A stretch of DNA of 64,000 nucleotides from a virus. Shown here one piece after another: positions 3,121 to 61,979 of this stretch. Numbering within the stretch: position 1 is the first letter of the stretch; each line of letters starts with the position of its first letter. The stretch is from the IMG/VR virus record IMGVR_UViG_3300032323_002843, positions 23,909-87,908 of that record, one strand, 5' to 3'. Below the pieces are notes generated by a model. That model made no database searches and had not been told where the DNA came from. It saw nothing but the letters and a program-made list of their open reading frames with translations. The position numbers and the translations under genes are program-made.

Positions 3121-3735
3121 TTAACAAAGAGGACAAACCCCAGTTGCGTTACAAATAATCTCAGTTATTAAACCATTTACTTTACTATAATCTTTTACTG
3201 ACATATGCTTTTTAGATTCAGCTAATGTCATATATGCTTGTGGGGTTGATGGTACTGATACTAAATCCCAACACAGTAATTCAAAATCGTCTTGTACTTC
3301 AACAGTTTCACCTAATTGCTTAACTGAACCCATACCACGAGATGAGATACCAAGTGGAATACCTGATAATATAAGTGCTTTAGCAATATTACCACTTGGT
3401 GTAGGTAATAATTGTAATTTACCCATTAAATCGTTTCCTTTCCACCATACTTCAGTAATAACGTGTGATGTATTTGATAAGTTAACAACAGATGCTTCAG
3501 GGTGATCGAGTTCTCCTAAAGCAGTACGTGTTTTTACAGGACCTTCTGCATATTTTTTAACTTCTCTTTCAAGAATTTCGCGAGGATATACACGACCGTT
3601 ACCATTCTTTTGTTCTGCTTCTTGTAATTTACCAACAAGGGTAACAAGAGATTTACCTTCACCTAATTGTTTATTTTCAACAATTGTAATGTTTGCTGTT
3701 TGGAAGGGAGTATGGTCTATTAATAAAGATTTCAT
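3121..3735 (-). CDS. 21: Prohead core protease gp21
   Basis: A 204-residue serine protease of the T4 gp21 family (MEROPS S80, HK97-protease-like fold), which matures the prohead by cutting scaffold, capsid and internal proteins after L/I-x-E. Visible motifs are NGNGRVYPREILEREV (residues 44-59), the catalytic His in GELDHPE (His78) and the catalytic Ser in GISSRGMG (Ser131/132), in the family's order and spacing. It lies between portal-side genes and the scaffold, as in T4. It is the predicted processing enzyme for the capsid-targeting peptides described elsewhere in this window. Confidence 0.93.
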   Translation of the reverse strand: MKSLLIDHTPFQTANITIVENKQLGEGKSLVTLVGKLQEAEQKNGNGRVYPREILEREVKKYAEGPVKTRTALGELDHPEASVVNLSNTSHVITEVWWKGNDLMGKLQLLPTPSGNIAKALILSGIPLGISSRGMGSVKQLGETVEVQDDFELLCWDLVSVPSTPQAYMTLAESKKHMSVKDYSKVNGLITEIICNATGVCPLC

Positions 3736-26205: not shown

Positions 26206-27408
26206 TTATTGTCCCTTAACTGGGAAACGTGTCCATCCATTTATCCATGTTGGTTTAGATATAGTTTCCATTTCAGCTTTAGTATAGCTTACTTCTTTGT
26301 TACCTTGTGATAATGCTTTTATTTTTATATCAGCAGCGGTAAACACTGTAGATGTAGATCTAAAGTTTAATAATGGGTCGAATGACTGTACTTCATTATT
26401 TTCAAACTTACTAATACCATCTTTATAAGCTTGTGCTGTTTCATTTGATTCAATACTAAATCCACCTTTTTGATATCCTAATATTTTAGAATTAGTCATT
26501 GTAAACTGTGTTGCACGTCTCCATCTTAAACCTAGATTGTGGTTTGCTAATGAAGCAGCATCAAATGGTCCAATCAGTACCATACTATTTAATTTAGGAT
26601 GTGTAAATGGTTGAGCGGTTGAGCCTGTACCATCATTATCACATTCTATACCATTTCCAGCATCACCATTATCTACAAATTGTGGATCACGTTTTGAGAT
26701 ACTGTTTGTTATAGTTCCAGTATAACCAAAATCAAAATCATAATCATCATCTGCAGTAGCAAAAGCATATAAATTTTTAGCATTTACAGTACCACCAAAA
26801 AATTCAAACGCATCATCGTTAGCATAAATAGTTTGAACATTCTCAATAATTGTTCCACTACCAACACCACCTAATGTTAATGCATTGATTTCGGAGTTTG
26901 GCATTGCTGCAATTCCAGCATATTCAATACGAATAAATTTTAAAACACCACTATTATCTAAATCATTAGTACCACCATAAGGACGACCAATACCACCTTC
27001 GATAGTTGGTTCTGATGATCTGTTGGTTTTAGCACGGCCTAAAATTACAATACCACCCCAATCGCCAGGAGACCTCTCGCCGACGTTTTTGCCTGAGGTG
27101 AATATAATTGGTTTTGTAGCTGTACCTTCAGCTATAATTTGAGCCCCTCTTTCAATACACAGGGCACCTTTTTCAGCAATATCACTTATAATAGTGGTAC
27201 CTGGTTGGATGATAAGTTTAGCACCATCAGTTATGTAAACATATCCTTTTAAAGTCCATGTTTTGTCTGATGTTAATGTAATTGTTGTGTTAATGTTACC
27301 GCTTAATGTTGTTGATGTAGGGACATTAATTGGTCCTTCACCTCCACCTAATTCTTTTTTGCAGGAAAATAGTCCAATGATAGCTAATAGTGTTAATAGC
27401 TTTTTCAT
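26206..27408 (-). CDS. Outer-membrane lipoprotein, beta-helix type, partner of TonB receptor
   Basis: A 400-residue lipoprotein. The signal peptide MKKLLTLLAIIGLFSCKKE carries a lipobox with Cys16 and the following Lys-Lys, typical of Bacteroidota. The mature part opens TLSGNINTTITLTSDKTWTL and repeats strand-turn units (WTLKGYVYITDGAKLIIQPG, GDWGGIVILGRAK, IENVQTIYANDDAFEFFGGT) suggesting a right-handed parallel beta-helix. It overlaps the receptor gene by 4 nt (ATGA), so the two are translated together. In bacteria such lipoproteins accompany TonB receptors as surface partners. Ligand unknown. Confidence 0.8.
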   Translation of the reverse strand: MKKLLTLLAIIGLFSCKKELGGGEGPINVPTSTTLSGNINTTITLTSDKTWTLKGYVYITDGAKLIIQPGTTIISDIAEKGALCIERGAQIIAEGTATKPIIFTSGKNVGERSPGDWGGIVILGRAKTNRSSEPTIEGGIGRPYGGTNDLDNSGVLKFIRIEYAGIAAMPNSEINALTLGGVGSGTIIENVQTIYANDDAFEFFGGTVNAKNLYAFATADDDYDFDFGYTGTITNSISKRDPQFVDNGDAGNGIECDNDGTGSTAQPFTHPKLNSMVLIGPFDAASLANHNLGLRWRRATQFTMTNSKILGYQKGGFSIESNETAQAYKDGISKFENNEVQSFDPLLNFRSTSTVFTAADIKIKALSQGNKEVSYTKAEMETISKPTWINGWTRFPVKGQ

Positions 27409-29648
27409 AAGTTTAAGTTTAATGTTAATGAAATTATTTGTTCGTTGTTTGTTTTAATTAAATCACCTTTTGTTTTTTGGTAATAAATGGATGGCTGCGC
27501 AAACACATCACTTATTGCCAGTTTAAGTTCACCTTTATTTATTTTATGTAAGTATACTACATCTAAAACGTTTCTAGAATTTTCAAATATATCAGCATAT
27601 CCTTGGAAACCAACTGCTGATATTCTATCTCCTACTCTATTATAAGTAATGTTTAATGTTTCTTTTTTCTTGTGTAAATTAATACCACCATTAATAACGT
27701 AATTAGATTGACCTTGCATTTGTCTATTTAATCCTTTTACATTTGAATTCATTAAGGATGTATTAGTATAAAAATCAAACCATCCATTTATTTTCTTACG
27801 AATTTCTATTTCAACACCATATAACACAGCAGATTCTGGGTTAGTGTAGGTTAGTAGTAAATTAGATGGTACTGATCCGTCTGCTACTATTTGTTCAATT
27901 GGTTTGATAAAATTTTTACCAAATAAACTTACAGATATATTTTCACCTGCTTTTGGATATAATTCCCATTTTAAATCTAAATTATATATGTCAGATTTTT
28001 CTAGATTAGGATTACCTAACAATTGTGCATTACGTACAAAATCATAATAAGCAAAATTAGCTACTTCTCTAAATTCAGGACGTGCTAATGTTTTACTTAA
28101 TGAAAATCTATACTTTGTTTTTTCTAAATTGTAAGAAAGATTTAATGATGGAAGTGGATCTAAATACTTTCTATTTACATTTACTCTAGTACCACTAAAG
28201 TCAGCTGTTTGTACATTAAATAAATTGTATTCTGTTCTTAATCCAGTATTTAATTTCCATTTACCAAAATCTTTATCATACATTACAAACCCATTAGCTA
28301 AATCAAAATCAGCTGTGTATCTATCTGTATTATTAGTAATTTCATTTAACATATCAACAGCATCGTATCTGAATATTCTTGCTTGAAAGTTTCTTAAGCG
28401 TTTAACGTATCCACTTCCAACTTTAATATCACCAAAATCTTTACTAATGCTTCCATTAAAACTATTTTCATCCATTACACTCCAAAAACGATATGTATCT
28501 CTCCAAGCAACAGCATAAGGTTCATTTATACCTAATGATTTAGTGATTGGATTAACTCTATAGTCAGGTTGATCACGTAACATTAAATTATGTCCTAAAT
28601 TAATATCCCATGTTTTAATTTTAGCATCAAACTGAGTGTTAATAGATGTTTTAATGATATTGTTTGAAGAATTACTTCTAACATTTTGTACATTATCAAA
28701 ATTATCACCATTACGAGTTAAATAAGATTCTTCAACTTGGTTATTAAATAATGTTTTTAAGCTATAACGATTAACTCCTAAATAAGTTATGTTTAATAAT
28801 CCATTTAATGATTTTACATTAGTAAATGATGTGTCCTTATATTTGTAAGCTAATTCAGTTGATGATTGATAATCTTGTCTATCAATATAGTTTAATGAAT
28901 ATGAATTACGAGCTACAGAACTAAATAATACGTTCCAATTATTTTTCTTAACACCAAATGATAAAGCACCATTAGCATTAGGAATAGATATAAATTCTTT
29001 AGCTAATGGAGATGAAATTAACTTAGTATATGCTCTTTTATCTCCGTTTCCACTAATACGAAATTTGTATGTAGAAGGAAAATTAGATGGAAAATCAACA
29101 CGTTTAACCAATTTAAAGTTTTGATTTGTAGATATTAATCCATATCCACTACCTAAACTTAAATTAAGAAATTTACTAGATACTTCTTTAGTTGATACTT
29201 GAATTAACCCACCAGCAAAATCACCTGGTAGATTAGCTGTAGATGATTTATTTACAACTATATTATCTATTAAACTAGAAGGTATAATGTCAAATGAAAA
29301 TGCTCTACGGTCAGGTTCAGTAGAAGGAAGCAATGTTTTGTTTAACATTGCTAAATTGTAGCGATCAGCTAACCCTCTAACTAATACAAATTTATCGTTT
29401 TGTACCGTGACACCACTTACACGCTTTAAAGCATCACTAGCAGTTCTATCAGGTGTTTTTTTAATAAAATCAATTGATACACCGTCAGATACAGCTAGAT
29501 TATTACGAACAATGTTTATAACAGCAGCTTCAGTGGATTTTTTGCCTGTAGAACGAATTGTTACTTCAGACATTGTTTTATTAAATAAAGTATCTTGGGT
29601 AAAACCAAAACCAGGACACAATAGTAATAGGACTAATATGTATTTCAT
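27405..29648 (-). CDS. TonB-dependent outer-membrane receptor
   Basis: A 747-residue receptor. Residues 1-18 (MKYILVLLLLCPGFGFTQ) are a signal peptide. The plug domain is clear: TPDRTASDALKRVSGVTVQN, FVLVRGLADRYNLAMLNKTL, LPSTEPDRRAFSFDIIPSSL, IDNIVVNKSSTANLPGDFAG, GLIQVSTKE (about residues 64-170). About 22 beta strands of a barrel follow and end with the outer-membrane signature IISLTLNLNL. It lacks the N-terminal carboxypeptidase-like domain common in Bacteroidota receptors. No frameshift or truncation is visible. Base composition matches the surrounding phage genes. Its substrate is unknown; the ligand may be a scarce nutrient. Confidence 0.9.
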   Translation of the reverse strand: MKYILVLLLLCPGFGFTQDTLFNKTMSEVTIRSTGKKSTEAAVINIVRNNLAVSDGVSIDFIKKTPDRTASDALKRVSGVTVQNDKFVLVRGLADRYNLAMLNKTLLPSTEPDRRAFSFDIIPSSLIDNIVVNKSSTANLPGDFAGGLIQVSTKEVSSKFLNLSLGSGYGLISTNQNFKLVKRVDFPSNFPSTYKFRISGNGDKRAYTKLISSPLAKEFISIPNANGALSFGVKKNNWNVLFSSVARNSYSLNYIDRQDYQSSTELAYKYKDTSFTNVKSLNGLLNITYLGVNRYSLKTLFNNQVEESYLTRNGDNFDNVQNVRSNSSNNIIKTSINTQFDAKIKTWDINLGHNLMLRDQPDYRVNPITKSLGINEPYAVAWRDTYRFWSVMDENSFNGSISKDFGDIKVGSGYVKRLRNFQARIFRYDAVDMLNEITNNTDRYTADFDLANGFVMYDKDFGKWKLNTGLRTEYNLFNVQTADFSGTRVNVNRKYLDPLPSLNLSYNLEKTKYRFSLSKTLARPEFREVANFAYYDFVRNAQLLGNPNLEKSDIYNLDLKWELYPKAGENISVSLFGKNFIKPIEQIVADGSVPSNLLLTYTNPESAVLYGVEIEIRKKINGWFDFYTNTSLMNSNVKGLNRQMQGQSNYVINGGINLHKKKETLNITYNRVGDRISAVGFQGYADIFENSRNVLDVVYLHKINKGELKLAISDVFAQPSIYYQKTKGDLIKTNNEQIISLTLNLNL

Positions 29649-54081: not shown

Positions 54082-54396
54082 TTATACCGTGAATATACGT
54101 GATTGGCTCTGCCTATACTGTGGTTCAGTGTATAGATCATTGTAGAACTCAATTACCGTTTTCATGTGTGTATCGATGTGTGCAGCGTCTAGCTTGATCT
54201 TATCACTGGACCAGTTCAGTACACACGTATCATGATGGCTGCGGTGCCAAGTGATCGTATCGTCTATACTGGTGTAGTCGACTGGAACGAATAATACGGT
54301 ACCATCACCCTCATTATCGTGTACTTCATATCCCATTGACTCAGCTAGCTCATATGCTGCTTTATTGATCGCGTTTTTAATTTCTTTCTTGTTCAT
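54082..54396 (-). CDS. Small hypothetical protein
   Basis: A 104-residue protein (MNKKEIKNAINKAAYELAES). Mixed alpha/beta with a VHDNEGDGTVLFVPVDY strand. Unrecognised. The last codons coincide with the promoter of the next gene: the early box at 54088 and its upstream GGCAGAG element lie inside its coding end. Confidence 0.6.
   Translation of the reverse strand: MNKKEIKNAINKAAYELAESMGYEVHDNEGDGTVLFVPVDYTSIDDTITWHRSHHDTCVLNWSSDKIKLDAAHIDTHMKTVIEFYNDLYTEPQYRQSQSRIFTV
54088..54097 (-). promoter_or_regulatory. Early promoter box, inside upstream coding end
   Basis: TATATTCACG, 27 nt before ATG 54060, with GGCAGAGC upstream. Both lie within the last codons of the 104-residue gene. Confidence 0.5.
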
Positions 54397-56405: not shown

Positions 56406-57065
56406 CTATCGACGAGCGCTTTTAGGGCGCCCGCGCTTCCCTCCAGTGCGTACTCTAGTGGCCGCCTTCTGGCTGACCCTCTGGGCGATCACCTCACTAG
56501 TGAGTGACGGACGTCCCCTCTTACCTGCGGGTTTGGGACCCACACTGGACAAAACCTTAGGGGTGGTTGACGCTGGACGTCCACGCTTACCTCCACTGCG
56601 CGTTGAGCGCTCAATTTTAGCTGCGTCTCTGGCTGCCTTAACTGCTGGATCCAGAGCTGGACGTCCCCTGCGGCCACCCTCTACTTTCACCTTCGGTGGC
56701 TTGCTCCCACGCTTCGCAGCACGTTCACGTGCCGCCTGAGCCTTCTCAGCTCGACGCAACATTTTATCCAATGTTTTCTTATGTTTAATAATCGCTGGGT
56801 GTAAACAAACCTGATCCATATCGTAGTTACGTACACCACCTCCCCCGTCACGTACCTCAAAACCACCGTTGGGAAAAAGCTTATGTTCACCTGGCGCCCA
56901 TTGGCGTATCAGATGGAACCATAAATTCTTCTCGTAAAAAAACGGTGCGGGTAAAACCCTATCGCCTGGCTTCATTACCATTAGCTCTGGCTCGATGTCG
57001 GTGTAGCTTAGGTATGTACCTAGTTTCGCACCACCCACTATAAAATCATTTTCTTTAACTTTCAT
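56406..57065 (-). CDS. AT-hook protein with four hooks and an N-terminal domain
   Basis: A 219-residue protein. The N-terminal 95 residues form a compact domain (DFIVGGAKLGTYLSYTDIEP, RVLPAPFFYEKNLWFHLIRQ, FEVRDGGGGVRNYDMDQVCL). The C-terminal half is a Lys/Arg/Ala tail with RRGRP at 132-136 and KRGRP at 160-164, 182-186 and 210-214. It is strikingly GC-rich for this genome. Minor-groove DNA binding is inferred from the hooks; the N-terminal domain may recruit another factor. Early promoter box 16 nt upstream. Confidence 0.78.
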   Translation of the reverse strand: MKVKENDFIVGGAKLGTYLSYTDIEPELMVMKPGDRVLPAPFFYEKNLWFHLIRQWAPGEHKLFPNGGFEVRDGGGGVRNYDMDQVCLHPAIIKHKKTLDKMLRRAEKAQAARERAAKRGSKPPKVKVEGGRRGRPALDPAVKAARDAAKIERSTRSGGKRGRPASTTPKVLSSVGPKPAGKRGRPSLTSEVIAQRVSQKAATRVRTGGKRGRPKSARR

Positions 57066-61379: not shown

Positions 61380-61925
61380 TTACTCTGCCAAGTACAATCG
61401 ATTGTGATTGTATAGTGCAACGGGATTATCTTCGGTTAGTAATCCATAATTTTCCTTAACATGCTCATATATAGCGCTTAATGGCTCATTAATTACTTCA
61501 CCTAATAACTGAGCGAAGTAGTTGTTTGATGTTGTTACTGTTTCTTGTGGTGTACCTGGTAATCCACAGTAATGTGCTTCGCCTACTTCACTAATGAACA
61601 TACCACTATAGAAACCATATAGTTCATGTCTATTCATGAATTGATCTGCATTACACCATATTGAGATACATTCAACGTTCTTTAATACGTCTACCATTGT
61701 TGAATCAATTATGTAACCATTATTGCCTATGAATTGACCTACACTGAATAGACCAAATGGTGAACCATGACCTAACATTATGATTCGGTCGTGTTGAACC
61801 ATTAGTTCTTTAACTTGATCCTTAGTTGCTCCACCATTTAAAATGATAGCATCGCTTATATTCTCGTATATCGGTTTTAGGAAATCCGTACTACGATCAG
61901 CAGGGTGTATAATTAAATTTTTCAT
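61380..61925 (-). CDS. Caspase-like/CHAT-type candidate protein
   Basis: A 181-residue protein read from ATG 61925 (MKNLIIHPADRSTDFLKPIY). Hydrophobic strand IIMLGHGSPFGLF with His53-Gly54, then a strand ISIWCNADQF with Cys91: the spacing and strand-HG / strand-C pattern of clan CD cysteine peptidases (caspase, gingipain, CHAT). GFYSGMFISEVGEA follows. I recall this protein family in phages and Bacteroidota; catalysis has not been shown to my knowledge. Early promoter box 2 nt upstream. Confidence 0.66.
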   Translation of the reverse strand: MKNLIIHPADRSTDFLKPIYENISDAIILNGGATKDQVKELMVQHDRIIMLGHGSPFGLFSVGQFIGNNGYIIDSTMVDVLKNVECISIWCNADQFMNRHELYGFYSGMFISEVGEAHYCGLPGTPQETVTTSNNYFAQLLGEVINEPLSAIYEHVKENYGLLTEDNPVALYNHNRLYLAE

Positions 61926-61927
61926 AA

Positions 61928-61937
61928 CATAAAGATA
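61928..61937 (-). promoter_or_regulatory. Early promoter box, 2 nt before ATG
   Basis: TATCTTTATG, 2 nt before ATG 61925. It touches the terminator-like hairpin at 61936-61956. Confidence 0.45.
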
Positions 61938-61956
61938 GGGCACTTATTGTGCCCTA
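61936..61956 (-). terminator. Hairpin upstream of the caspase-like gene
   Basis: Perfect 8-bp stem TAGGGCAC/GTGCCCTA with a 5-nt loop, 24 nt after the stop of the gene ending at 61980. Likely terminates it, while the promoter of the next gene abuts its foot. Confidence 0.55.
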
Positions 61957-61979
61957 CCTAATTTACTTAACTTTAAATA

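What the first reader, a model, noticed from the sequence alone, without database searches (positions are those of the whole stretch)
61380..61925. Phage protein with caspase/CHAT-type His-Gly and Cys strand pattern
LGHGS after a hydrophobic strand and WCNAD after another, 37 residues later, with a compact 181-residue fold. These are the hallmarks of clan CD cysteine peptidases. A phage early-gene peptidase could cut a host or defence protein; an inactive version could act as a decoy for host caspase-like defences. It has its own promoter directly at the ATG.
Basis: partly seen in the sequence, partly recalled or inferred. Interest (0 to 1): 0.64.

Follow-up and report, generated by a model that had tools for sequence, protein, structure and literature searches.

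The report
Phage-encoded minimal caspase-like protease family
A Bacteroidota phage carries a small, strongly conserved protein predicted to be a stand-alone cysteine protease with the caspase fold, one of an undescribed family shared by many phages and some bacteria, and a good candidate for a tool the virus uses to cut a protein in the cell it infects.

Summary
On the minus strand, 61380-61925 encodes a 181-aa protein with LGHGS (His53) and WCNAD (Cys91). The clan CD idea is well supported. AlphaFold2 gives a confident model (pLDDT 97, pTM 0.92) with the caspase order of elements: His53-Gly54 follows strand 3, a small beta section precedes helix 3, and Cys91 follows strand 4. Foldseek hits with the highest TM-scores are clan CD proteins (Csx29, RgpB); for a bacterial relative all four top hits are (caspase-4, SAVED-CHAT). 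His53, Cys91 and Asp10 are invariant in 103 aligned relatives and 6 distant ones, mostly not found through those motifs. dN/dS is 0.05-0.26. No Pfam, NCBIfam, PHROG or PADLOC model matches. At sequence level it is neither CHAT nor C14, so it is a new family. At least 182 viral contigs carry a relative, and so do about 1% or fewer of Bacteroidota genomes. Distant relatives carry the canonical Ser/Ala-Cys motif and end a four-gene operon (C5-methylase, double HATPase, receiver-like protein, caspase-like protein) at 6 of 6 loci. Most likely it is an active endopeptidase, perhaps cutting after Arg/Lys, used against a host or defence protein. An inactive decoy is unlikely. The promoter claim was not supported. 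Activity and target are untested.

The parts
61380..61925 (-). Coding sequence of the caspase-like protein, 181 aa
   Evidence: ORF; 182 related viral stretches, 64 genome loci; dN/dS 0.05-0.26; AF2 pLDDT 97.3
61896..61898 (-). Asp10, start of helix 1; invariant; candidate S1-pocket acid
   Evidence: Invariant in 103 + 6 sequences; same element as the S1 acids of MALT1 (Asp365) and TbMCA2 (Asp95) (PMC4357240)
61767..61769 (-). His53 of the GHG motif after strand 3; proposed catalytic histidine
   Evidence: Invariant in 103 + 6 sequences; model strand 47-51
61653..61655 (-). Cys91 of the WCNAD motif after strand 4; proposed nucleophile
   Evidence: Invariant in 103 + 6 sequences; model strand 85-89
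61548..61604 (-). Loop after strand 5 (residues 108-126; G108, M109, I111, S112, E113, E116 conserved), corresponding to clan CD loop L5
   Evidence: L5 role from PMC4357240
61933..61959 (-). Hairpin just upstream of the ATG; stem kept with changed pairs in related phages; terminator-like

Best explanation
The gene encodes a minimal, single-domain, single-chain cysteine endopeptidase with the caspase/haemoglobinase (clan CD) fold, with His53 as base and Cys91 as nucleophile. By inference from the invariant Asp10 on helix 1 and Glu113/Glu116 on loop L5, it cuts after a basic residue (Arg or Lys). The phage makes it as a free-standing enzyme to cleave a host protein during infection, most plausibly a defence or regulatory protein. 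Shown here by computation: the fold class, the position of the dyad, its near-perfect conservation, purifying selection, wide occurrence in Bacteroidota phages, and kinship to the last gene of a bacterial methylase/HATPase/receiver-like operon. Inferred: activity, P1 preference and target.
For: Two AF2 models from different clades, pLDDT 97.3 and 95.8, share the element order b1-a1-b2-a2-b3-His-(small beta section)-a3-b4-Cys-b5-L5-a4-a5-b6, as described for caspases (PMC4357240). Highest query TM-scores among the listed PDB hits: Csx29 0.54, RgpB 0.51-0.53, TPR-CHAT 0.50-0.51, caspase-4 0.48, against mostly 0.32-0.44 for flavodoxins and others. For the bacterial relative the first four hits are caspase-4 and SAVED-CHAT. 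Invariant Asp10, Gly52-His53-Gly54 and Cys91. Distant relatives replace Trp-Cys by Ser/Thr/Ala-Cys, the usual clan CD form. dN/dS 0.05-0.26. The phage has its own prohead protease (PF03420), so a capsid role is unlikely.
Against: Foldseek E-values are weak, and in the first search flavodoxin-like proteins rank above caspases by E-value. No sequence or profile link to C14, CHAT or C11 was found. Tryptophan directly before the nucleophile is unusual for clan CD. Nothing identifies a substrate.
Confidence: 0.5

Rival explanations
1. It is an active caspase-like toxin or defence effector carried by the phage for its own benefit: it would kill or arrest the cell when a competing phage enters, like the related protein at the end of the bacterial methylase/HATPase/receiver-like operon.
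For: Distant relatives are the last gene of such an operon at 6 of 6 loci. Bacterial caspases act in several antiphage systems (PMC12799240). Prevotella relatives sit near ADP-ribosylglycohydrolase, macro-type, NUDIX and PP2C genes.
Against: The phage gene has no sensor or partner gene that travels with it: the commonest upstream neighbour cluster is at only 20 viral loci. It is common in what look like large lytic phages, where a self-harming effector is less expected.
Confidence: 0.2
2. It is a non-peptidase with a flavodoxin- or Rossmann-like fold in which the conserved His, Cys and Asp bind a ligand or cofactor.
For: The first Foldseek search ranks flavodoxin-like proteins first by E-value; both folds share the first four strands.
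Against: TM-scores favour clan CD; a small beta section follows the histidine in both models; profile comparison with flavodoxins finds nothing; an invariant His-Gly/Cys pair at the ends of strands 3 and 4 is not a flavodoxin feature (general knowledge).
Confidence: 0.12
3. It is a catalytically dead decoy that soaks up regulators or substrates of host caspase-like defences.
For: A dead tandem paralogue without both residues exists in one Prevotella genome (L116).
Against: Every phage copy examined keeps His and Cys.
Confidence: 0.05
4. It is a virion-maturation protease.
For: It is a phage-encoded predicted protease.
Against: The phage already has a prohead core protease at 3121-3735 (PF03420, phrog_207). 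This gene lies about 58 kb away among small unknown genes, and relatives occur in bacterial chromosomes without an obvious phage context.
Confidence: 0.03

Closest known systems
Clan CD cysteine peptidases (caspase/haemoglobinase fold; PMC4357240)
   Same: Order of secondary-structure elements, small beta section after strand 3, His-Gly after strand 3, Cys after strand 4, acidic residues in S1-type positions; highest structural similarity to Csx29, RgpB, caspase-4 and SAVED-CHAT
   Different: No detectable sequence relation to C11, C14 or CHAT; Trp before the nucleophile; only 181 residues with no partner domain
CHAT peptidases (PF12770; Csx29/TPR-CHAT, SAVED-CHAT)
   Same: Fold and dyad position
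   Different: No Pfam or profile match; no TPR or SAVED domain, free-standing
Methylase / double-HATPase / receiver-like / caspase-like operon found here (L264-L269)
   Same: Clear homology (profile E 2e-14 in a whole-genome search; hhalign probability 97.8%) with matching Asp10, His53 and Cys91
   Different: Operon proteins have Ser/Thr/Ala-Cys and about 215-222 residues; phage copies are stand-alone
Response_reg_2 / HEF_HK two-component-like loci with C5 methylases (PMC8011034)
   Same: C5 methylase plus HATPase plus receiver-like protein
   Different: The receiver-like protein here does not match PF19192; that paper's main text has no mention of a peptidase

Membership tests
Clan CD (caspase/haemoglobinase fold) | Core of four strands and three helices in the order b1-a1-b2-a2-b3-a3-b4 | tested here: met
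   Two AF2 models. Order along the chain only; sheet order 2-1-3-4 could not be read without coordinates.
Clan CD (caspase/haemoglobinase fold) | Small beta section between strand 3 and helix 3 | tested here: met
   Strands at 54-55, 58-60 and 71-73 in the window protein; the same in the second model
Clan CD (caspase/haemoglobinase fold) | Catalytic His at the end of strand 3 with an adjacent Gly | tested here: met
   G52-H53-G54 invariant in 109 sequences; strand 47-51
Clan CD (caspase/haemoglobinase fold) | Catalytic Cys at the end of strand 4 | tested here: met
   C91 invariant in 109 sequences; strand 85-89
[quoted passage not shown]
   Six candidate strands (3-6, 26-29, 47-51, 85-89, 104-107, 177-180); directions not visible
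Clan CD (caspase/haemoglobinase fold) | Structural similarity to solved members | tested here: inconclusive
   Best TM-scores are clan CD (0.46-0.54) but E-values are modest (5e-4 to 1e-2)
Clan CD (caspase/haemoglobinase fold) | Cysteine-dependent site-specific endopeptidase activity | not testable with these tools
   Needs a bench assay
CHAT (PF12770) | Match to the family profile | tested here: not met
   No hit among 101 members; hhalign finds nothing
Peptidase C14 (PF00656) | Match to the family profile | tested here: not met
   No hit; hhalign probability below 2%
Peptidase C11 (PF03415) | Match to the family profile | tested here: not met
   No hit; the C11 profile used held only 8 sequences
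Flavodoxin-like (PF02525) | Match to the family profile | tested here: not met
   No hit
Known antiphage defence proteins (PADLOC) | Match to any of 5027 models | tested here: not met

The most novel reading that the evidence does not exclude
Bacteroidota phages widely carry minimal caspases related to the effector of a previously undescribed bacterial conflict operon (C5 methylase, double HATPase, receiver-like protein, caspase-like protease), and use them as active proteases to short-circuit or pre-empt host caspase-type immunity.
Probability: 0.22. Interest if true: 0.82.

Novelty: new variant of a known kind. Interest (0 to 1): 0.62.

Why it matters
Bacterial caspase-like proteases are known as antiphage effectors (CRISPR-associated Csx29, canu, Thoeris; PMC12799240), but I found no paper in the held library describing a widespread family of phage-encoded ones. 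If active, it would be a compact model caspase and a candidate counter-defence or host-takeover protease in gut and aquatic Bacteroidota phages. The link to a four-gene operon points to a possible unrecognised defence system that can be tested.

Tried and rejected
Pfam, NCBIfam, PHROGs, PADLOC and PDB sequence searches found no family. Profile comparison with C14, CHAT, C11 and flavodoxin profiles built here found nothing. PLSDB plasmids: no match. The Ser-Cys operon type was not found in viral contigs. The 'gut phage' record MT837816 is nearly identical to a Leyella stercorea chromosome copy, so it may be bacterial DNA rather than a phage. A conserved partner gene in phages was sought and not found. 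Response_reg_2 membership of the operon's receiver-like protein was tested and rejected. Co-location of Prevotella relatives with ADP-ribose and phosphatase genes was seen but not tested for enrichment. BFVD structure search gave no significant hit; its weak list includes a 'caspase-like protein' from a cedratvirus at TM 0.44.

Full report
What is there. The coordinates are right but the gene is on the minus strand: ATG at 61925, TAA at 61380, 181 residues. LGHGS is residues 51-55 and WCNAD 90-94, so His53 and Cys91 are 38 positions apart. The window belongs to an 87,908-base virus record with a T4-type head module: terminase, portal, prohead core protease and baseplate wedge. The gene lies among small minus-strand genes; the five neighbours tested have no PHROG match.

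Family. No library names it. Related loci are plentiful: 182 stretches in IMG/VR, of which 80 loci were kept, identity 52-97%; 64 loci in Bacteroidota-dominated genome assemblies, identity 27-50%; and Lak megaphages at about 25-30%. By profile, only 3 of 395 Bacteroidota genomes carry one, and that set includes the centre genome already known to be positive, so it is rare in chromosomes. In the tree, 47 viral rows and 9 environmental genome rows form one group apart from a Bacteroidales chromosomal group; support for the viral group is 81/100, not starred, and the Lak row has a long branch. The genome rows could include prophages or misbinned contigs; this was not resolved.

Conservation. Across 103 aligned members Asp10, Leu16, Gly52, His53, Gly54, Leu59, Cys91, Ala93, Met109, Ile111, Ser112, Glu116 and Asn173 are invariant. 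Retrieval used motif patterns, which could bias this, so loci were split: 65 of 66 loci not found through the Cys pattern keep Cys91, and 99 of 101 not found through the His pattern keep His53; the remaining two are a truncated ORF and a paralogue. Profile-only searches then found distant relatives that also keep both residues. Close relatives show dN/dS 0.05-0.26. The single real exception is a tandem paralogue in Prevotella sp. 885 (L116, 5370-5978) with GDG and WPES in place of the two motifs, next to an intact copy.

Structure. AF2 with 101 sequences gives pLDDT 97.3 and pTM 0.92; a bacterial relative with 46 sequences gives 95.8 and 0.91. Both have the order b1-a1-b2-a2-b3-[HG]-small beta section-a3-b4-[C]-b5-loop-a4-a5-b6. 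McLuskey and Mottram (PMC4357240) define the clan by this core, by His and Cys at the ends of strands 3 and 4, by a Gly beside the His, and by a small beta section between strand 3 and helix 3. Foldseek against the PDB gives its best query TM-scores to Csx29 (0.54), RgpB (0.53), TPR-CHAT (0.50-0.51) and caspase-4 (0.48), although flavodoxin-like proteins lead by E-value. For the second model the first four hits are caspase-4 and SAVED-CHAT. No coordinates were available, so active-site superposition remains to be done.

Sequence relation to known clan CD families is not detectable. That is expected: a review notes that clan CD families are grouped by structure, and that YabG lacks sequence homology with other members (PMC12445089). 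The missing link is partly supplied by distant relatives. They read LLSCNS, LLTCKS, LLSCRS, LISCRS or LLACDS in place of IWCNAD, that is, Ser/Thr/Ala before the Cys. hhalign joins them to this family at 97.8% probability with GHG on GHG and Cys on Cys.

The operon. At all six loci of this sister group the gene follows a C-5 cytosine methylase, a large protein with HATPase_c_3 and HATPase_c domains (split in two ORFs in L264), and a receiver-like protein of about 235 residues. PADLOC knows only the methylase. It resembles the Response_reg_2/HEF_HK/C5-methylase loci of PMC8011034, but the receiver-like protein does not match PF19192. A defence role is inference.

Mechanism. Acidic S1 residues on helix 1 and loop L5 go with basic P1 specificity in MALT1 (Asp365, Glu500) and on helix 1 in metacaspase TbMCA2 (Asp95). 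Here Asp10 opens helix 1 and is invariant in all 109 sequences; Glu113 and Glu116 lie on the loop after strand 5. I therefore predict cleavage after Arg or Lys, at about 50%. The retained dyad argues against a decoy, and the separate prohead protease against a capsid role. The neighbours in phages vary, so the enzyme probably acts alone on a host target. Counter-defence or host takeover is the likeliest use; a phage-borne defence effector is the main rival.

Confidence by step: clan CD fold 0.88; active cysteine endopeptidase 0.7; directed at a host or defence protein 0.5 overall; basic P1 0.5.

Noticed in passing
window 61933-61959 (-) and upstream of the gene in L001-L004, L007, L008, L012, L016-L020: An 11-bp hairpin followed by TATCTTTATG sits directly upstream of the gene in most close relatives, with stem sequences that differ but still pair; possibly a terminator/promoter unit between genes. 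A similar hairpin seems to precede another gene near 54396.
   Followed up: partly
window 27405-29648 (-) and 26206-27408 (-): The phage record encodes a TonB-dependent receptor-like outer-membrane protein (Plug plus OMP_b-brl_3) next to a lipoprotein-like protein, unusual cargo for a phage.
   Followed up: partly
L264-L269: A four-gene operon (C5 methylase, double HATPase, receiver-like protein, caspase-like protein), unknown to PADLOC apart from the methylase; a candidate defence system.
   Followed up: partly
L116 5370-5978: Tandem paralogue lacking both catalytic residues (GDG, WPES) directly upstream of an intact copy in Prevotella sp. 885; perhaps a regulatory partner.
   Followed up: no
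L093, L097, L098, L110, L112, L115, L120, L126, L133, L142: Rumen Bacteroidales relatives lie close to ADP-ribosylglycohydrolase genes, often with macro-type, NUDIX/NrtR and PP2C genes nearby; enrichment not tested.
   Followed up: partly
window 56406-57065 (-): Small basic protein with repeated GKRGRP-type AT-hook motifs; no Pfam match.
   Followed up: no
L010 (MT837816): A GenBank 'Bacteriophage sp.' scaffold nearly identical in this gene, with similar neighbours, to a Leyella stercorea chromosome; may be mislabelled bacterial DNA.
   Followed up: partly
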